NCBI RefSeq assembly: GCF_000938265.1
Contig: NZ_JYFC01000002.1
Location: forward strand, 558,001-622,000
DNA from: Agreia bicolorata
GTDB lineage: Bacteria > Actinomycetota > Actinomycetes > Actinomycetales > Microbacteriaceae
Length of the DNA stretch: 64,000 bases
Direction of reading: 5' to 3'
Below, one piece after another: positions 1,742-56,028 of this stretch (the stretch's first letter is position 1; every line of letters begins with the position of its first letter). The position numbers and the translations under genes were made by a program. The notes beneath the pieces were generated by a model, which was not told where the DNA came from, searched no databases, and saw nothing but the letters and a program-made list of their open reading frames with translations.

Positions 1742-4700
1742 TCTTCCGCTGGCTCCGCGCACACGCCTCCCAGGCGATCACCACGGCGAGTGTGCTCGTC
1801 GTCACCGCCGTCGTGCTCGCCATCGCGCTCGTGTCGACGGGCTACACCGAACAGAAACTCGAACTCGACGACGCGTCGGTCTGGGTGACCAACGGCTCGC
1901 GTCAGGTGGTCGGGCGTGCGAACACCGACGTTTTCGAGCTCAACACGGTGGTGACGAGCGAGGGCAGCGACATCGATGTGCTGCAGCGCGGCGAGACCGT
2001 GCTCGCGCACAACCACACGAGCAATACCCTTCAGATCATCGATCCCGCGTCGTCGCAGGTCACTTCCACGATTCCGCTGCCGGCGGGCGACCCCGATGTC
2101 ACGCTCGTCGACGGCCAGGTCGTCATTCACTCGGGAACCACGGGCGAGGTCTGGGTGGTGCGCGAGGCCAATCTCGATGCATTCGATTCCACGGCGCAGC
2201 CGCTGCTCAGCCTCGATGCGGGCAGCGTCGTGGCCGTCGATGATACGGGCACGCTGGTGGGTTTCGACCGTCAGTCGCAGCGGCTCGTGACGGCCGATCT
2301 CTCCTCCGGTGCCGAGCCCCGCTCCGAGGCGGTCGCCGGTCTCGACCTGCAGGATTCCGACGAGCTTCAGATCACGCGTACCGGCGGCGTCGCATCCGTT
2401 CTCGATGTGACGAGCCGTGAGCTGGTGGTGGGCGGAACGCAGGTCGACCTGTCTGATCGCATCGCCTCGTCTGCCGAGCTTCGGCTGGCCGCGCCGACCA
2501 CGGCAGGCGGGGCTGTGCTGCTGGCCTACACCGGCGGGCTGCTCGGCATCGATACGTCGTCGGGCGCCGTCGAGCAGCTGGTCGACGGCACCGATGGCCG
2601 CCCGACGCAGCCGCTCGTCGACGACGGATGCGTGTACGCGGCCTGGGCCGACGGCTCGACCTGGCAGCGTTGCGGGTCGACGGATGCGGTGCGCGGGCAG
2701 CTGGCCGGTGTCTCGGCCGACGACGATCTGGCGTTTCGCAGCAACGGACGCTATGTCGTTCTGAACGATCGCGGCGCCGGCCGAGTCTGGGCGGTGCAGC
2801 ACGAGAACCGACTCATCGACAACTGGAGCCAGCTGATCGACGACGACGATGATCCTCAACAAGACAACGAGGTCGACGACGACACTCCGCCCGAACTGGT
2901 CAAAGACCAGCAGCCGCCCGTGGCCAACCCCGACGACTTCGGCGCCCGGCCCGGCGTATCGAGCATTCTGCCTGTGCTTCTCAACGACTACGACCCGAAC
3001 GGCGACGTTCTCTCGATCACGGCGACCTCCGAGATCGACCCCGCGATCGGGCGGATCGACCTCGTCAGCACGGCGCAGCAGCTCCAGGTCACGCTGACGC
3101 CGCAGGCATCCGGAACCTTCTCGTTCGACTACACCATCTCCGACGGCCGTGGCGGCACCGCGTCGAGCACTGTCTCCGTGACGGTACGCGCGCCGGGTGA
3201 GAACTCGGCGCCTGTTCAGGCGAGGACGACGAAGGCGACCGTGGCTGCCGGGGGCGTCTTCACCGCGAACGTGCTCGGCGACTGGTACGACCCCGACGGT
3301 GACCCGATGTACCTGGAGGACGCGCAGACGGGCGAGCCCGACCGCGTATCGTTCTCGCCGGCGGGAGAGCTCGACTTCCGCGACGGAGGCACCGCGGCGG
3401 CGGAGAAGGACATCGGCCTGCAGGTCTCCGACTTCAGCCTGTCGGGTACCGGTCAGGTGAGGGTCACCGTGTCTGATCCCGGCTCCGTTCCGATTCTGAC
3501 CGATGGATTCCTGGTGCAGGGCTACACCGGCCAGGAACTGCAGATCGCTCCGCTCTCTCACGTGCGCGGGGGCACGGGTGTCATTCGCCTCAGCAATGTC
3601 GCCGACTACCCCGAGGCGAAGATCACACCCAACTACGCCAAGGGCACGTTCCGCTTCCAGGCTCAGAACGCGGGAGTGCACTACCTGTCGTACTCGGTCA
3701 CCGACGCGGCGCAGCAGACGGCGACGGGCATCATCCGGGTCGACATCGCCGCGGCACCGGATGCCTCGACCAAGCCGATCACGGTTCCGACGGTCGCGTT
3801 CCTCTACCAGCAGCAGACCGACATGGTCGACGTGCTGGCCACCGACATCGACCCTGCCGGGGGAGTGCTGAGCATCGCGGGTGTAACCGGCGTTCCAGCG
3901 GGATCCGGCGTCGTCGTCGAGGTCATCGAGCACCGCATCCTGCGCGTCAGGCTCAACAACCCTCTCGACGCACCGGTGACGTTCACCTACACGGCCACGA
4001 ATGGATTCTCGAGCGCCGAGGGTGTCGTCACTGTGTACCAGGTGCCAGAGCCGAAGAGGCTGCAGGCGCCCGTCGCAGTGGCCGACAGCGTCTCGGTGCG
4101 TGTGGGCGAGGTCATCGATATTCCCGTGGTGGCCAACGACGAGCATCCGAATCGCAAGCCGCTCGTACTCGACCCCGAGCTCGTGCAGAACGTTCCGGCG
4201 GGCGGCGGGCTGCTGTTCGTCTCCGGCAACCACCTGCGCTATCTGGCGCCCGACGAGCCGGGCGACTACACGGCCATCTACCGTTTGGACACGACGGCAG
4301 ACGTGCAATTCGACACCGCCCAGGTGACGATAGCGGTGAGAGAGGCCGATGCCGCCACAAACACGGCGCCGGTGCCGCCGACCCTGTCGGCCCGCGTTCT
4401 GGCCGGCGACACCGTCACGATTCCGGTGCCGCTGGGCGACATGGATGCCGATGGCGACTCCGTGAGGCTGGTCGGCGCCGCCTCGAATCCGTCGCAGGGC
4501 AACGTGACCGTCGCGGGCGACGTGCTGAACTACACGGCGGGTGCCGCATCACAGGGAACGGACACGTTCTCGTATGAGGTGGTCGACAGCCTCGGCGCAC
4601 GCGCGACCGGCATCGTTCGGGTGGGCGTCAGTCCGAGTTTCGACACGGCGAGCCTTCCCGTCGCGGTCGACGACGTGGTCGTCACGACCCCGGGCACCGC

Positions 4701-7590
4701 CATCACCGTGCGGGTGCTGGAGAACGATTCCGACCCGAATGCCAGCCCGCTTCACGTCACCGGCGTGGAGTCCGCCGTCGTCGCCGTCGATGTGCCCAAG
4801 TCGGCTGACCGCATCACGTTCCATGCGCCCGAGGCCGAGGGCGACTACGCGGTGCTCTACACGATTCAGAACGACGGCGGCCAGCAGGCGTCTGCCTGGC
4901 TTCGCGTTCGAGTCGACGCCGACGCGCCTCCGGTGCGGCCGGAGGCCGACGACACCGTGCTGAATCTGACCGACATTCAGGGCCGCGACGAGGTCACGGT
5001 CGATGTGATGCGCAGGGTCTTCTATGCGGAGGGCGATGTCGGTTCGCTCGCGCTGTCATTGGTGCCGGGGTACGACACGACGGCGTCGGTGCTGCAGAAC
5101 GACCGGGTGCGCGTCACCGTGCAGCAGAAGAGCCAGATCATTCCGTTCGTCGTCTCCCGATCCGACGATCCCAGTGTGAACGCCACCGCGTTCATCTGGG
5201 TGCCCGGTCTCGAAGACGCGCTGCCCGAATTGCGCACGACGGCCAAACCGCTGCAGGTTCTCAGCGGCGACACGTTGTCGATCGACATCAACGACTACGT
5301 GGTCGCGGCCGGAGGCAGGCAGGTGCGTCTGACCGACGAGGCCACAGTCAAGGCAAGCAACGCCGACGGAACGAATCTCGTGGTCGACTCCCGCACCCTG
5401 CGGTTCACGAGTCGCGACGGGTACTGGGGCCCGGCATCCCTGTCGTTCGAGGTCACCGACGGGTCTGGTCCCGATGATCCGAACGGGCACAAGGCCGTGA
5501 TCGTGCTCGCGATCACCGTCACCCCTCGTGACAACCAGCCCCCCGTCTTCTCCGGCGCCCAACTCGGACTGCAGCCGGGTGACAGCCGAGTGATCGAGCT
5601 CCGCGACCTCACCAAGTATCCGTATCCCGACGACCTGGATCAGCTCGTCTACGCGCTCAACTCCCAGCCGGGCTCCGGGTTCTCTGCATCGCTCTCGGGC
5701 ACGCAGCTCACGGTCGCGGCGGCACCGGATGCCAAGGTCGGCAGCGGCTCAGAGTTCACGGTGGGCGTGCGCGATGAGAAGAGCGAGGGAAAGGCCGGCA
5801 TCGTCAGACTCTCGGTCGTCACCTCGACTCGACCCCTCGTGAGCCCCGGGGCCGACAGCCTCACGATCCGTCGCGGCGAGACGGCGACCATCCCCGTTCT
5901 CGAGAATGACGCGGCCACCAATCCGTTCCCCGACAAGCCTCTGACCGTCGTCGCCGTACAGGGAGCCGTGCCGGCCGGTGTACAGGTCACTCCGAGTGCA
6001 GACAAGAGCACGCTCTCTGTCACCGTGTCGCCTCAGCTCGACCTCAAGGCCACGGGCCAGGTGACGATGCAGTACCAGGTCGCCGACGCCACGAAAGACC
6101 CGGCGCGCGCCACCTGGGGAACGGTCACGATCACGATCGTCGACGTGCCGGACCAGCCCGTGGCACCTGTGCTCTCCGGTGCCGGGTTCGTGAACGGACA
6201 GCTCAGTGTGTCGGCGGCGCCCCTTCCGTATCCCAACGGAGCCCCCATCACGTCGTTCATCATCCGCAGCGACGACAACGGCGGATACTCGAAAGACTGC
6301 GGCGCCTCGGCCACCTGCCTGCTCACCGACCTGCAGGCGGGCAAGAACTACACGTTCTACTCGATCGCGGTGAACCAGTACGGGCAGTCGGCGCCCAGCG
6401 CTCGCAGCGCTCCGATGCGCAGCGACTACATCCCCGCGCCCCCGCAGCAGGTCACGATCACCCGTGAGGCCGCCGACCAGACGCAGTCGAATGAGGGCTA
6501 CGTCATCGTGTCGTGGAAGCCGATCGCCGACCCGACCCCGGGAAGCGCGGTGCAGCGCGTGCAGGTGCAGATCGGGGGATCGACGGTCACGCTCGACCGC
6601 TCGGCGACCTCGTTGCGCTACAAGGGTGTTCCTGGCACCGAGTACACGGCCGAGGTGTGGGCCGAGAACGGTGCCGATGCGCTCTATCCCGGTCAGATCC
6701 CGTGGAACAGGTCGAACTCAGGCACCGTCACCGCCGCGGGTCGTCCCTCTGCCACCGCTGTCTCGGCGACGATCGTCGACAACGCCGGATCCGTGCGGGT
6801 CGACTGGTCGGCCTTCGGTGCCAACGGCGGATCGAACGTGACGTACTCGGTGGTGCGCTACGAGGCGACGGCGTCCGTGCCGAGCTGCAGCCAGGCATCC
6901 GGTTCGCCCGCCGTCTCGCCCGGCGTTGTTCTGCCGAGCAACCACGACGACATCGGATCCCGGTTCGTCTACGTCGTCTATGCCGACAATGGGTGGGGCT
7001 GTTCTTCGGCGCAGACAGGCAGCGTGCGAGTGCTGGTGCCGCCTGATCCGCCGACGGTGTCTCTCACGTATCAGAGCCCCGTCGATGGCCTCTATGGCGT
7101 GGCCGTGGCGAGCGCCACGCCGACTCCGCTGCCGAACACCAACGCGTCGGAGTACACCGTGCAGGTGTCGGGCGGTGGGGCGGTCTCGGCCGGATCGCCG
7201 CTGACCGGAGCCGGCCCGTGGACCTTCACCTCGTGCATCACGAGCGATGGAACCACCCGATGCAGCGAAGCCGCAGCGCCCACGAATGCTCTCAGCCCCG
7301 TGAACGCGAACGCGACGGTCACCTCGTGCGTGGCCGGCAGTTCCGTGTCAGCGGCGCTCGAGAGCCCCGGCTCCGTCTCCTGGACTTTCCAGTACTCCTT
7401 CAGATCGTCGGTCGCCGGTATCCCCGGAATCTGGTCGAGCTGGTCCGACGATCCCACGGTGCCGGCACTGAGCGGATTTGAGGACTCCCAGGAGGTGGTC
7501 GTTCGCACGATCGGCAATGGGGGAGACTTTACGAACGGTACCGACCAGAACGAGCTGCGCCAGCGCGGCAGCGGCAAGCTGTGCGGCTGA
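1738..7590 (+). CDS. Giant membrane-anchored Ig-like/FN3 repeat protein
   Basis: 1950 residues from the ATG that overlaps the kinase stop. An in-frame upstream ATG at 1657 lies inside the kinase gene and is not used here. Residues 12-33 form one hydrophobic helix, probably a signal anchor. Residues of about 35-380 look like a beta-rich, propeller-like region. From about 394 to 1470 there are many bacterial Ig-like repeats carrying variants of NDYDPNGD (also NDSDPN, TDIDPAGG, MDADGD), typical of Big_9/cadherin-like modules. From about 1475 onward FN3-like domains follow. The C-terminus has scattered cysteines and ends in CG. It is probably exported and attached to the membrane as an adhesive or wall-spanning scaffold. 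The domain limits are my estimates from residue patterns. Confidence 0.82.
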   Translation: MIFRWLRAHASQAITTASVLVVTAVVLAIALVSTGYTEQKLELDDASVWVTNGSRQVVGRANTDVFELNTVVTSEGSDIDVLQRGETVLAHNHTSNTLQIIDPASSQVTSTIPLPAGDPDVTLVDGQVVIHSGTTGEVWVVREANLDAFDSTAQPLLSLDAGSVVAVDDTGTLVGFDRQSQRLVTADLSSGAEPRSEAVAGLDLQDSDELQITRTGGVASVLDVTSRELVVGGTQVDLSDRIASSAELRLAAPTTAGGAVLLAYTGGLLGIDTSSGAVEQLVDGTDGRPTQPLVDDGCVYAAWADGSTWQRCGSTDAVRGQLAGVSADDDLAFRSNGRYVVLNDRGAGRVWAVQHENRLIDNWSQLIDDDDDPQQDNEVDDDTPPELVKDQQPPVANPDDFGARPGVSSILPVLLNDYDPNGDVLSITATSEIDPAIGRIDLVSTAQQLQVTLTPQASGTFSFDYTISDGRGGTASSTVSVTVRAPGENSAPVQARTTKATVAAGGVFTANVLGDWYDPDGDPMYLEDAQTGEPDRVSFSPAGELDFRDGGTAAAEKDIGLQVSDFSLSGTGQVRVTVSDPGSVPILTDGFLVQGYTGQELQIAPLSHVRGGTGVIRLSNVADYPEAKITPNYAKGTFRFQAQNAGVHYLSYSVTDAAQQTATGIIRVDIAAAPDASTKPITVPTVAFLYQQQTDMVDVLATDIDPAGGVLSIAGVTGVPAGSGVVVEVIEHRILRVRLNNPLDAPVTFTYTATNGFSSAEGVVTVYQVPEPKRLQAPVAVADSVSVRVGEVIDIPVVANDEHPNRKPLVLDPELVQNVPAGGGLLFVSGNHLRYLAPDEPGDYTAIYRLDTTADVQFDTAQVTIAVREADAATNTAPVPPTLSARVLAGDTVTIPVPLGDMDADGDSVRLVGAASNPSQGNVTVAGDVLNYTAGAASQGTDTFSYEVVDSLGARATGIVRVGVSPSFDTASLPVAVDDVVVTTPGTAITVRVLENDSDPNASPLHVTGVESAVVAVDVPKSADRITFHAPEAEGDYAVLYTIQNDGGQQASAWLRVRVDADAPPVRPEADDTVLNLTDIQGRDEVTVDVMRRVFYAEGDVGSLALSLVPGYDTTASVLQNDRVRVTVQQKSQIIPFVVSRSDDPSVNATAFIWVPGLEDALPELRTTAKPLQVLSGDTLSIDINDYVVAAGGRQVRLTDEATVKASNADGTNLVVDSRTLRFTSRDGYWGPASLSFEVTDGSGPDDPNGHKAVIVLAITVTPRDNQPPVFSGAQLGLQPGDSRVIELRDLTKYPYPDDLDQLVYALNSQPGSGFSASLSGTQLTVAAAPDAKVGSGSEFTVGVRDEKSEGKAGIVRLSVVTSTRPLVSPGADSLTIRRGETATIPVLENDAATNPFPDKPLTVVAVQGAVPAGVQVTPSADKSTLSVTVSPQLDLKATGQVTMQYQVADATKDPARATWGTVTITIVDVPDQPVAPVLSGAGFVNGQLSVSAAPLPYPNGAPITSFIIRSDDNGGYSKDCGASATCLLTDLQAGKNYTFYSIAVNQYGQSAPSARSAPMRSDYIPAPPQQVTITREAADQTQSNEGYVIVSWKPIADPTPGSAVQRVQVQIGGSTVTLDRSATSLRYKGVPGTEYTAEVWAENGADALYPGQIPWNRSNSGTVTAAGRPSATAVSATIVDNAGSVRVDWSAFGANGGSNVTYSVVRYEATASVPSCSQASGSPAVSPGVVLPSNHDDIGSRFVYVVYADNGWGCSSAQTGSVRVLVPPDPPTVSLTYQSPVDGLYGVAVASATPTPLPNTNASEYTVQVSGGGAVSAGSPLTGAGPWTFTSCITSDGTTRCSEAAAPTNALSPVNANATVTSCVAGSSVSAALESPGSVSWTFQYSFRSSVAGIPGIWSSWSDDPTVPALSGFEDSQEVVVRTIGNGGDFTNGTDQNELRQRGSGKLCG

Positions 7591-53277: not shown

Positions 53278-53652
53278 GTGATCGTGGGCATCGGCGTCGA
53301 CCTCGTCGACGTGCCTCGATTCGTGCGGTCGATCGATCGCACGCCCGGGCTTGTCGAGCGCCTGTTCGCCGAGGGCGAACGCGGCCGTCCTCCTCGGTCG
53401 CTCGCTGCGCGGTTCGCTGCCAAGGAGGCGCTGATCAAGGCACTTGGCGACTCCTCCGGCTTTCGGTGGCACGACATGGAGGTCGTGACCGATGAAGACG
53501 GCAAGCCGTCGTTTCTGCTTGCCGGACAGGTAGCCGAGACGGCGCGCGCCCGCGGCGTGGGACCGATTCACCTCTCGCTCAGCCACGACGGCGATTCGGC
53601 CTTTGCCTTCGTCGTGGCCGAGCGCGCCGAGGAGACCGGAGGCGGGGCTTGA
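53278..53652 (+). CDS. acpS: Holo-[acyl-carrier-protein] synthase
   Basis: 124 residues from GTG 53278, nine bases after glmS. Metal-binding [12 protein letters not shown] and [14 protein letters not shown], and [15 protein letters not shown] near the end, define AcpS. It transfers phosphopantetheine from CoA to ACP. Its TGA overlaps the start of the first racemase gene. CoaA, encoded nearby, feeds its substrate pathway. Confidence 0.96.
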
Positions 53653-54764
53653 TGAGCGCTTCCGGCACCGGTGCACCCATGGCGCCCGACTCGGTCGCGT
53701 TGATCGACCTTGCGACGGTTCGCCACAACGTCGCCCGATTCGTCTCCCTCGCCGACGGGGCGCAGGTGATGATCGTGGTCAAGGCGAACGCATACGGGCA
53801 CGGCGCCGTCGAGGTTGCGCGCGCCGCGCTCGACGGTGGTGCGACATGGCTGGGCGTTGCCGATCTCGCCGAGGCCTTTGAGCTGCGGGATGCGGGGATC
53901 GCAGAGCCCGTGCTCGCCTGGCTGCACGAGTCCCACGAGAATTTCGCGGCGGCGTTGGAGGCGGGCATCGACATCGGCGTCAGCGATCTCGGCCAGCTCG
54001 ATGCGCTCGCCGAGGCTCAGCGTGCCGTCGGGGGAGCTCCCGCGTCTGTGCACCTCAAGCTCGACACAGGGCTGGGGCGCAACGGTGCCGATGAGCCGAA
54101 CTGGGGTGCCCTCTTCGCCGAGGCGCGTCGACTCGAGCTCGCAGGTCACCTGATCGTTCGAGGTGTCTTCAGCCATCTCTCCAATGCAGACGACGCAGAA
54201 GACGCGCGCCAGCTCGAGCGCCTGCATGTCGGCGTCGAGGCCGCACGCCAGGCGGGCTTGCGGCCGCAGCTTCGCCATCTGGCATCGACCGCTGCAGCGC
54301 TGCGACTGCCCGCCACGTGGCTCGACCTCGTGCGTGTCGGTATCGGCGCCTACGGTCTCTCCCCGCTCGACGGTGTCGACTCGGCTGCGCTCGCGCTTCG
54401 CCCGGTGATGACGCTGCGCAGCACGATCGTCGCGGTCGCACCCTCGTCCGACGCCGATTTCGCAGCACGATCGGGCATCGTGCCCCTGGGCTATGGTGAT
54501 GGCATTCCTCCGCAGGCCGCAGGCCGCATCCATGTCACCGGCGACGGTGGGCGGCTTCTCGTGACGCGCATCGAATCCGACCATCTCGTCGTCGAGCCTG
54601 TATCGCCGGGCGCAGATTCGGCACGGGGAGATGTCGTGACCCTGTTCGGTGACCCGGCCCGGGGCGTCGCCTCCGTCGATGACTGGGCGCGTGCCGCCGA
54701 CACGATCAACTACGAGATCGTCACCCGACTGGGCGCCCGGGTCGCGAGAAAGTACACGGAATGA
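53652..54764 (+). CDS. alr: Alanine racemase-like subunit with the PLP-binding barrel (lacks partner Tyr segment)
   Basis: 370 residues from ATG 53652, which overlaps the acpS stop. The PLP barrel is complete: Lys 44 and Tyr 48 in VVKANAYGHG, Arg 143 in DTGLGRNG, His 209 in RHLASTAAAL, Arg 228 in VRVGIGAYGLSP, and Tyr 354 in TINYEIVTRLG. In the C-terminal domain the stretch that normally reads G-VSYG before the GYADG motif is missing (VAPSSDADFAARSGIVPLG), so the Tyr that racemases donate to the partner's active site is absent. The Met-Asp motif is also degenerate (TRIESDH). Coupled by ATGA to the complementary gene downstream. Expected to act with it in D-alanine supply. Confidence 0.9.
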   Translation: MSASGTGAPMAPDSVALIDLATVRHNVARFVSLADGAQVMIVVKANAYGHGAVEVARAALDGGATWLGVADLAEAFELRDAGIAEPVLAWLHESHENFAAALEAGIDIGVSDLGQLDALAEAQRAVGGAPASVHLKLDTGLGRNGADEPNWGALFAEARRLELAGHLIVRGVFSHLSNADDAEDARQLERLHVGVEAARQAGLRPQLRHLASTAAALRLPATWLDLVRVGIGAYGLSPLDGVDSAALALRPVMTLRSTIVAVAPSSDADFAARSGIVPLGYGDGIPPQAAGRIHVTGDGGRLLVTRIESDHLVVEPVSPGADSARGDVVTLFGDPARGVASVDDWARAADTINYEIVTRLGARVARKYTE

Positions 54765-55537
54765 CCCCGCCAGCCACGCCCGCAGACACGCCGATCCGCG
54801 GACGCGAAGCCACGATCGACCTCGACGCGTTCCGCACCAACGTGTCGATCCTGGCCGCTCGGACTGTCGGTGGTCCTCTCGTGATCGACATGACGGCGGA
54901 TGCCTACGGCCACGGACTCGTTCCTCTCGCCCGCGTCGCGGCAGAGTCGGGCGCAGATATTCTGAGCGTGCGCGATCAAGGGGATGCCGAGAGCATCGCC
55001 GATGCCGGCATCGGAATCGATGTGCGCTGCTGGCACACGACGCGGTTCTCTGTTCCGCCCGCAGGATCGGGCATCGCGGCATTCGGTTTCGGCATGGATC
55101 TCACTGACGGTGCGCCGACCGGAGTCGTTCCCGTGATGACCGTCTCTGCCCCTGTGCTTTCGGTGAAGAGAGTGCCCGAGGGCCACGGGGTCTCGTACGG
55201 ATTCGTGTATCGAACCCCGAAGGAGACGACCCTCGCCCTCGTGCCGGTGGGCTATGCCGACGGCATTCCTCGTGGCGCAACCGGCTCGGGGCGCATGGCG
55301 ATCAACGGCCGCCAGTACCCCATCGCGGGCCGCATAGCGATGGATCAGGTTGTGCTCGACGTCGGCGACGCGCCCATGGTTCCTGGCGACCGGGCCATCG
55401 TGTTCGGGCCGGGTCTCGAGGCAGAGCCGACCGCTGCGGACTGGGCCGCGAACTCGGGCTCGACTGCGGGGGAGATCCTCGCGCGGATCGGCCGTCGTGT
55501 TCCCCGCCGGTACATCGATCGGGAGGTGGCCAGGTGA
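54761..55537 (+). CDS. Truncated alanine racemase paralogue carrying the catalytic C-terminal domain
   Basis: 258 residues, about 110 fewer than a full racemase, with no frameshift. The position of the PLP lysine is Thr 45 (IDMTADAYGHG). After about the third barrel strand the sequence jumps to the last one (IAAFGFGMDL), so the middle strands with the Arg and His PLP contacts are gone, and the NYE tyrosine is replaced (STAGEIL). In contrast the C-terminal domain is excellent: Tyr 146 in GHGVSYGFVYRTP, VPVGYADGIPRG, and Met 194-Asp 195 in AGRIAMDQVVLDV. It cannot be an active homodimer but could complete the active site of the upstream protein. Overlaps that gene and tsaE by four bases each. 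Confidence 0.88.
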   Translation: MTPPATPADTPIRGREATIDLDAFRTNVSILAARTVGGPLVIDMTADAYGHGLVPLARVAAESGADILSVRDQGDAESIADAGIGIDVRCWHTTRFSVPPAGSGIAAFGFGMDLTDGAPTGVVPVMTVSAPVLSVKRVPEGHGVSYGFVYRTPKETTLALVPVGYADGIPRGATGSGRMAINGRQYPIAGRIAMDQVVLDVGDAPMVPGDRAIVFGPGLEAEPTAADWAANSGSTAGEILARIGRRVPRRYIDREVAR

Positions 55538-56028
55538 CCGCGCTGCACAGAGAGCTCGTGATCGCAGATCCCGGACAGATGGCGGCTCTCGCCCACGAGG
55601 TGGCGGGCTCGCTCACAGCTGGTGACGTCATTCTGCTCACGGGCGAACTCGGGGCGGGCAAGACCACCTTCACGCGGGGGCTTGGCCACGCGCTCGGCGT
55701 TCGGGGCGCGGTGACGAGCCCCACCTTCGTGCTCGCCCGAACGCATCCGCGTCTTGATGCCGCCCAGCCGCCCCTCGTGCACGTCGATGCCTACAGGCTT
55801 TCGAGCGCTGTCGAGCTCGACGACCTCGACATCGACTTCGACCGCTCCATCGTCGTCATCGAATGGGGTGCCGGCCTCGTCGAGGAGCTCACCGACTCGT
55901 GGCTCTCGATCACGATCGATCGGCCGCGCGGCGCATCCGATGATTCGGATGCCGAGGGCCCCGACGACGAGGAGCCGATCGAACCGCGCCGGGTCACCAT
56001 CGACGGCGTCGGCCCGCGCTGGCAGTGA
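55534..56028 (+). CDS. tsaE: tRNA threonylcarbamoyladenosine synthesis ATPase TsaE
   Basis: 164 residues from GTG 55534, overlapping the racemase paralogue. Walker A GELGAGKTTFTRGLG, TSPTFVLARTHP, and HVDAYRLSS plus IVVIEWGAGL are TsaE signatures. An acidic insert (DDSDAEGPDDEEP) precedes the last strand. Works with TsaB and TsaD, encoded just downstream, in making t6A on ANN-decoding tRNAs. Confidence 0.95.
   Translation: MTALHRELVIADPGQMAALAHEVAGSLTAGDVILLTGELGAGKTTFTRGLGHALGVRGAVTSPTFVLARTHPRLDAAQPPLVHVDAYRLSSAVELDDLDIDFDRSIVVIEWGAGLVEELTDSWLSITIDRPRGASDDSDAEGPDDEEPIEPRRVTIDGVGPRWQ

What the first reader, a model, noticed from the sequence alone, without database searches (positions are those of the whole stretch)
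53652..55537. Two complementary half-dead alanine racemases that look like one obligate heterodimer
Alanine racemase (fold type III, head-to-tail dimer) builds each active site from both chains. In the Bacillus enzyme one chain gives Lys39, Tyr43, Arg136, His166, Ser204, Arg219 and Tyr354, and the other gives Tyr265 and Met312. Here the first gene keeps all the same-chain residues (Lys 44, Tyr 48, Arg 143, His 209, Ser 212, Arg 228, Tyr 354) but lacks the VSYG segment with the second base Tyr and has lost the Met. The second gene lacks the Lys (Thr 45), the middle of the barrel, the Arg and the NYE Tyr, but keeps exactly the donated residues Tyr 146, Met 194 and Asp 195. The loss is reciprocal, both frames are intact and the genes overlap by ATGA. 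The simplest reading is a split racemase with a single composite active site, possibly with new control or altered drug sensitivity. I do not know of a described example.
Basis: partly seen in the sequence, partly recalled or inferred. Interest (0 to 1): 0.92.

Follow-up and report, generated by a model that had tools for sequence, protein, structure and literature searches.

The report
Alanine racemase split into two halves
A cell-wall enzyme that normally works as two identical copies, each with an active site, appears here to have become two different, individually incomplete proteins that together make one active site; relatives show the same kind of change more than once, sometimes with the two halves joined into one protein.

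Summary
A1 (53652-54764) keeps the PLP side of alanine racemase but lacks the catalytic Tyr265 segment and Met312. B1 (54761-55537) lost Lys39 and most of the barrel but keeps Tyr265, Tyr284, Arg290, Met312, Asp313. Searches of the genome (Agreia; 99.98% complete) found no canonical alr but a second pair (B2-A2) beside murT-gatD; 7 of 8 genomes of the genus carry both pairs. Fetched loci gave 84 A and 82 B units; 81 of 82 B units lie next to an A unit (59) or in the same frame (22). Fusions follow local gene order. In 13 of 20 genomes with a fusion at the alr locus, every Ala_racemase_C match found lies in the fused frame. A full-length B that already lost Lys39, and intact tandem copies, look like earlier stages. 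All four Agreia genes show purifying selection. Best reading: an obligate heterodimer (or fused chain) with one composite site, making D-alanine; pair 2, with Asp/Glu at position 354 where aligned, may make another D-amino acid. No structure prediction could be run; nothing has been assayed.

The parts
53652..54764 (+). A1: catalytic (PLP-side) subunit, 370 aa; full barrel, C domain without the VSYG/Tyr265 segment
   Evidence: (TIGR00492 233 bits, cut-off 168)
54761..55537 (+). B1: donor subunit, 258 aa; N-terminal fragment of the barrel plus complete C domain with Tyr265/Met312/Asp313 equivalents
   Evidence: (TIGR00492 132 bits, below cut-off 168)
54761..54764 (+). ATGA stop/start overlap of A1 and B1
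53781..53783 (+). Lys44 codon of A1 (PLP lysine, Lys39 equivalent)
54711..54713 (+). Tyr354 codon of A1 (inner-gate Tyr, alanine-type)
   Evidence: role from PMC3485190 passages
54893..54895 (+). Thr45 codon of B1 in place of the PLP lysine
55196..55198 (+). Tyr146 codon of B1 (second catalytic base, Tyr265 equivalent)
55340..55342 (+). Met194 codon of B1 (Met312 equivalent), followed by Asp195
53278..53652 (+). upstream neighbour, acpS-like (name recalled from the sequence); conserved flank of locus 1
55534..56028 (+). downstream neighbour, tsaE-like (name recalled); its homologue is fused to the B part in relatives of one genus

Best explanation
A1 and B1 are the two unequal subunits of one alanine racemase. 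A1 binds PLP through Lys44 and supplies Arg143, His175, Arg228 and Tyr354. B1 has no PLP site of its own and donates Tyr146 (the second base), Met194, Asp195 and the entry residues Tyr165/Arg171 across the head-to-tail interface, so an A1-B1 dimer has one composite active site instead of two. It most likely interconverts L- and D-alanine for the cell wall. The pair arose from two tandem full-length racemases, alr and a paralogue with Asp at position 354, by reciprocal loss. The same kind of change happened separately in a second pair (B2-A2, beside murT-gatD), and in some relatives the two halves are now one chain. Shown here: residue partition, conservation, pairing, fusion, selection, no other alr found in the genome. 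Inferred: complex formation, stoichiometry, activity, substrate, and the order of events.
For: Residues: A units carry R136 and H166 in 84 of 84 and Met312 in 0 of 84 (22 of these not aligned there); B units carry Met312 in 82 of 82 and Arg290 in 81 of 82. K39 in A and Y265 in B are part of how the classes were defined, so they are not independent. Pairing: 81 of 82 B units have an A unit adjacent (59) or in the same open frame (22). Fusions: A-B at locus 1, B-A at locus 2, following gene order; of the 4 fused chains given to Pfam, 3 show one N-domain and two C-domain stretches and the fourth shows two of each. In 13 of 20 genomes with a locus-1 fusion no Ala_racemase_C match at E <= 0.001 lies outside it. 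No other alr found in the window's genome; no D-amino-acid aminotransferase over its cut-off, 3 weak matches below it; a strong D-Ala-D-Ala ligase domain match, 218 bits. Purifying selection: median dN/dS A1 0.18, B1 0.14, B1 C domain 0.10. Origin: A1 groups with tandem first copies (SH-aLRT 99), B1 with tandem second copies (84, 98.9 in the smaller set). Possible intermediate: L058 holds a full-length B with K39 to Thr. In a known structure the dimer partner supplies the second Tyr and an Asp to the site (PMC4517790, passages).
Against: No structure, complex or assay. Loci were fetched because they held racemase domains or matched the B model, so the unit counts are not a random sample. G006, placed in the same genus, has two full-length tandem copies instead. 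That B1 came from the tandem second copy rests on the C domain; the N fragment is unresolved. B units share an Asp two residues before the lost lysine (62 of 63 aligned) and similar deletion ends, which would also fit a single origin of B; all B as one clade is only borderline on the C domain (AU p 0.0595). The substrate is inferred from Tyr354 and gene position only.
Confidence: 0.91

Rival explanations
1. A1 alone is a functional enzyme (a slow or altered racemase, or another PLP activity such as an aldolase), and B1 is an independent or regulatory protein.
For: A1 scores above the alr equivalog cut-off. Changing the second base of alanine racemase to Ala is known (recalled) to bring out other PLP chemistry.
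Against: B units keep the donated residues and are paired with or fused to A in 81 of 82 cases. The B1 C domain is the most constrained part measured (median dN/dS 0.10). No other alr was found in the genome.
Confidence: 0.04
2. B1 is a decaying copy and A1 a damaged alr; D-alanine comes from another source.
For: Both genes look incomplete against canonical alr.
Against: Intact frames in 7 of 8 genomes of the genus, dN/dS well below 1 for both, no D-amino-acid aminotransferase over its cut-off.
Confidence: 0.01
3. The A1-B1 heterodimer is real, but its substrate is not alanine and the second pair makes D-alanine.
For: Two pairs exist, and neither has been assayed. In G022 the only pair found is of the Asp354 kind.
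Against: A1 keeps Tyr354, like 29 of 29 locus-1 A units and 46 of 55 full-length units. Locus-2 A units have Asp (38) or Glu (16) of 55, one not aligned. The Tyr354-Tyr265' pair is tied to alanine specificity (PMC3485190, passages). A1 also sits at the position of alr in relatives.
Confidence: 0.04

Closest known systems
Canonical bacterial alanine racemase (Alr, TIGR00492; fold type III homodimer)
   Same: Family, catalytic residues, chromosomal position in relatives, and a site made from both chains
   Different: Two non-identical chains share one set of catalytic residues; neither chain has both bases; one PLP barrel is mostly deleted, so one site per dimer is expected
Trypanosomatid deoxyhypusine synthase with its catalytically dead paralogue (PMC3663545, passages)
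   Same: Duplicated enzyme, one impaired and one inactive subunit, both required in the active complex
   Different: Unrelated enzyme and organisms; there the second subunit is described as an allosteric activator; here it would supply the missing catalytic residues
Trypanosoma AdoMetDC/prozyme (PMC5201418, search listing with start of abstract)
   Same: Dead paralogue needed for activity
   Different: According to the abstract it relieves autoinhibition; here the partner would donate the missing base
Lysine racemase Lyr / broad-specificity racemase Bar (PMC3485190, passages)
   Same: Fold type III racemases without the inner-gate Tyr354, a comparison for pair 2
   Different: Thr/Ala at that position where pair 2 has Asp/Glu; not split
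PddB, a PLP-independent 2,4-diaminobutyrate racemase of a homopolymer pathway (PMC8225329, search listing)
   Same: Makes a D-diamino acid in an actinobacterium, as proposed for pair 2
   Different: No PLP; weakly related to DapF, not to alanine racemase

Membership tests
Alanine racemase alr (TIGR00492) | Whole-protein score over the curated cut-off (168 bits) | tested here: inconclusive
   A1 233 bits, met; B1 132 bits, not met
Alanine racemase alr (TIGR00492) | Lysine (Lys39) and tyrosine (Tyr265) bases in the same chain | tested here: not met
   Neither chain has both; together they have one of each
Alanine racemase alr (TIGR00492) | L/D-alanine racemisation | not testable with these tools
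   Needs an assay
Alanine racemase alr (TIGR00492) | Homodimer | not tested
Enzyme with catalytically dead paralogue as obligate partner | Paralogous pair, one member without the catalytic residue | tested here: met
   Lys39 to Thr and most of the barrel missing in B1; both in the same Pfam families
Enzyme with catalytically dead paralogue as obligate partner | Conserved co-occurrence of both members | tested here: met
   81 of 82 B units next to or fused with an A unit
Enzyme with catalytically dead paralogue as obligate partner | Activity only in the complex | not testable with these tools
   Needs co-expression and assay
Lysine/broad-specificity racemase (for pair 2 only) | Inner-gate Tyr354 replaced | tested here: met
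   Asp 38, Glu 16 of 55 locus-2 A units, one not aligned
Lysine/broad-specificity racemase (for pair 2 only) | Activity on basic amino acids | not testable with these tools
   Needs an assay

The most novel reading that the evidence does not exclude
In Microbacteriaceae, homodimeric racemases were turned at least twice into one-site heterodimers, and in some lineages into single chains carrying one composite site. The second, acidic-354 pair is the missing racemase that makes the D-diamino acid (D-ornithine in Agreia) of the B-type wall. It would work with the neighbouring MurT-GatD, whose GatD has lost its glutaminase cysteine and so may no longer deliver ammonia but help attach an amino acid to the alpha-carboxyl of D-Glu.
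Probability: 0.4. Interest if true: 0.92.

Novelty: new variant of a known kind. Interest (0 to 1): 0.83.

Why it matters
Alanine racemase is an essential, much-studied enzyme treated as a homodimer. A family-wide set of split, intermediate and re-fused forms would make the step from a symmetric homodimer to an obligate heterodimer directly testable in bacteria. Pair 2 is also a candidate for the racemase behind the D-diamino acid of B-type peptidoglycan; the listings of searches showed me no paper on such a wall enzyme (15 of 33 and 3 of 3 papers listed; a racemase of another D-diaminobutyrate pathway, PddB, is among them).

Tried and rejected
Structure prediction of B1 and A1: 13 submissions (12 of B1, 1 of A1), each turned back because 100 jobs were waiting; no model was obtained, so no fold search was made. 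A first family-wide domain search (199 genomes) had a capped match list without the weak A-type hits; I made no count from it.

One common origin for all A units was rejected by AU test on 57 of the 126 barrel rows (p 8e-5), as was Agreia A1 with A2 (p 1.7e-6). Agreia A1 with the other locus-1 A units was not rejected (p 0.076), so I do not claim that those splits are independent. A2 alone as one clade gave p 0.027 (all). For B on the C domain (46 of 121 rows), B1 with B2 was rejected (p 0.011), all B together was borderline (0.0595) and B2 alone was not rejected (0.197). The N fragment was uninformative (B1+B2 p 0.369, B1+tandem second copies p 0.385). The trees are quick searches with several long branches flagged.

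B-like matches outside the family: G432 and G451 looked contiguous, but are canonical racemases behind another stretch; G430 and G465, also fetched, are canonical. PADLOC: no match for A1 or B1. Papers: searches. No split or heterodimeric alanine racemase was seen in the listings of 15 (9 of 9), (2 of 2; 3 of 3; 15 of 23 listed); the library holds only open-licence PMC papers.

Full report
Observation. The two genes are as described: A1 53652-54764 (370 aa) and B1 54761-55537 (258 aa), overlapping by ATGA, between acpS-like and tsaE-like genes (neighbour names recalled from the sequences). Pfam, NCBIfam and PDB comparisons place both in the alanine racemase family. A1 has the whole N domain and a C domain matching only from profile position 31. 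B1 has N positions 1-75 and the whole C domain. Residue by residue A1 keeps the same-chain set and has lost Tyr265, Arg290 and Met312. B1 has lost Lys39, the middle of the barrel and Tyr354, and keeps Tyr265, Tyr284, Arg290, Arg309, Met312 and Asp313.

Genome and genus. The window's genome has four Ala_racemase_C matches, which are two such pairs, and no canonical alr among the matches. The second pair, B2 then A2, follows murT-gatD (Pfam MurT_C and GATase_3; NCBIfam MurT/GatD models match below their cut-offs). Two further N-domain matches (50 and 28 bits) read as a YggS-like and a LysA-like protein (names recalled). Of 8 genomes of the genus, 7 carry both pairs and no full-length copy; G006 carries two adjacent full-length copies (residues).

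Family. Among 29 genera of the family sampled by one genome each (G008-G036), seven (G008, G013, G015, G019, G022, G027, G035) have a split or fused form, as read; in G015 the B part is still full length and in G019 the A part is cut by the contig end. Of the 23 genomes outside the family, 22 have a match and none of these is a partial C domain. A profile of 18 B sequences found contiguous barrel-less matches in at least 57 of 398 family genomes, counted by me from a capped list; loci of all 57 were fetched and each gave a B unit. In 148 genomes of the class (6 of this family), the listed matches beginning at model position 13 or before were in G000, G128, G181 and G225, all of this family, and in G432, which proved canonical.

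Units. From the loci held, 202 distinct racemase frames gave 84 A units, 82 B units, 55 full-length units and 3 unclassified. These loci were chosen for holding such domains; frames with the same last 150 residues were counted once; three further pairs are not in the counts. By definition A units have Lys39 and no Tyr265, and B units have Tyr265 and under half of the barrel. What was not in the definition: R136 and H166 in 84 of 84 A; Met312 in 0 of 84 A, 22 of them not aligned there; Met312 in 82 of 82 B; Arg290 in 81 of 82 B. The three unclassified are a full-length B with K39 to Thr (L058), an A fragment at a contig end (L074) and an overlapping frame (L191). 81 of 82 B units have an A partner; the one without is next to the cut A fragment of L074. 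81 of 84 A units have a B partner; the other three sit beside the full-length B (L058) or beside a B-TsaE fusion (L192, L193).

Fusions. 22 B units share an open frame with an A unit: 20 at the alr locus in the order A-B and 2 at the locus of pair 2 (L172, L202) in the order B-A, matching the gene orders there. Five of the 20, all in one genus, run on into TsaE; Pfam confirmed TsaE in the one scanned (L186). In 13 of the 20 genomes every Ala_racemase_C match lies in the fused frame; the other 7 also hold a pair of the second kind or further racemase matches. If the 13 need alanine racemase, the one composite site in that chain must do the work; this step is inference.

Selection and origin. 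Over 21 genome pairs of Agreia (7 genomes, my own Nei-Gojobori script), median dN/dS was 0.18 (A1), 0.14 (B1), 0.19 (A2) and 0.21 (B2), lowest in the B1 C domain, 0.10. In the barrel tree (126 rows, quick search) the 55 A2 units fall with five full-length tandem second copies that carry Asp or Glu at 354 (60 rows, SH-aLRT 99), while Agreia A1 falls with four tandem first copies (11 rows, 99). In the C-domain tree B1 falls with four tandem second copies (84; 98.9 in the smaller set). AU tests reject A1 of Agreia plus A2 as one clade (p 1.7e-6) and B1 plus B2 (p 0.011). They do not reject a common origin of all locus-1 A units (p 0.076). So at least two separate splits are supported. Against several origins: B units share an Asp two residues before the lost lysine (62 of 63 aligned; 0 of 84 A; 0 of 55 full-length) and similar deletion ends, and all B as one clade is only borderline (p 0.0595).

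Substrates. Locus-1 A units have Tyr354 in 29 of 29; locus-2 A units have Asp in 38 and Glu in 16 of 55, one not aligned. Tyr354 with Tyr265' sets alanine specificity, and a lysine racemase has Thr there, although putting Tyr back in it lowered its activity without changing its preference much (PMC3485190, passages). Agreia walls are type B2-gamma with L-Dab and D-Orn (PMC5945732, passages). I therefore read pair 1 as the alanine racemase and pair 2 as a candidate D-diamino acid racemase; the second part is a hypothesis. In support, GatD at the pair-2 locus lacks the glutaminase Cys in 38 of 38 aligned sequences (compared with S. aureus GatD); in some pair-2 loci no murT-gatD was found in the fetched stretch (for example L056, L057, L147). 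Of 28 control genomes searched, 17 had a match and 16 were aligned: Cys present in 6 of 6 from other families and in G010 and G023, absent in 8 family members. Those 8 include the five with a tandem acidic-354 copy, but also G009, G024 and G032, for which I know of no such copy, so Cys loss is not tied to that enzyme alone. That the aligned Cys and His form the S. aureus dyad is recalled.

Known work. The partner-chain contributions are as in a published structure (PMC4517790, passages). Trypanosomatid deoxyhypusine synthase is the nearest analogue in principle (PMC3663545, passages). No paper on a split alanine racemase appeared in the listings of searches of the open-licence library.

Noticed in passing
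L007:6155-6901 (G000 C1), and 37 other GatD sequences at pair-2 loci: GatD has lost the glutaminase cysteine in 38 of 38 aligned sequences, and in Agreia the histidine too.
   Followed up: partly
L186-L190; L192, L193: In one genus the fused racemase runs on into TsaE in one frame (A-B-TsaE, five loci); in two genomes B is fused to TsaE while A is separate. L191 has related overlapping frames.
   Followed up: partly
B units, residue two before the lost lysine (window B1 Asp43): An Asp is shared by 62 of 63 aligned B units and by no A or full-length unit; its role is unexplained.
   Followed up: partly
L077 (G022, a 0.9 Mb genome): A reduced genome whose only Ala_racemase_C match belongs to a split pair with Asp at 354.
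   Followed up: no
L058 (G015) 4336-5502: A full-length donor subunit with Lys39 to Thr, Arg136 to Gln and His166 to Thr but Tyr265 and Met312 kept; looks like an intermediate.
   Followed up: partly
L228, L229, L234 (other actinobacterial families): Canonical alanine racemase at the C-terminal end of 843-860-codon open frames (stop to stop), with about 480-500 residues of another, unidentified stretch before it.
   Followed up: no
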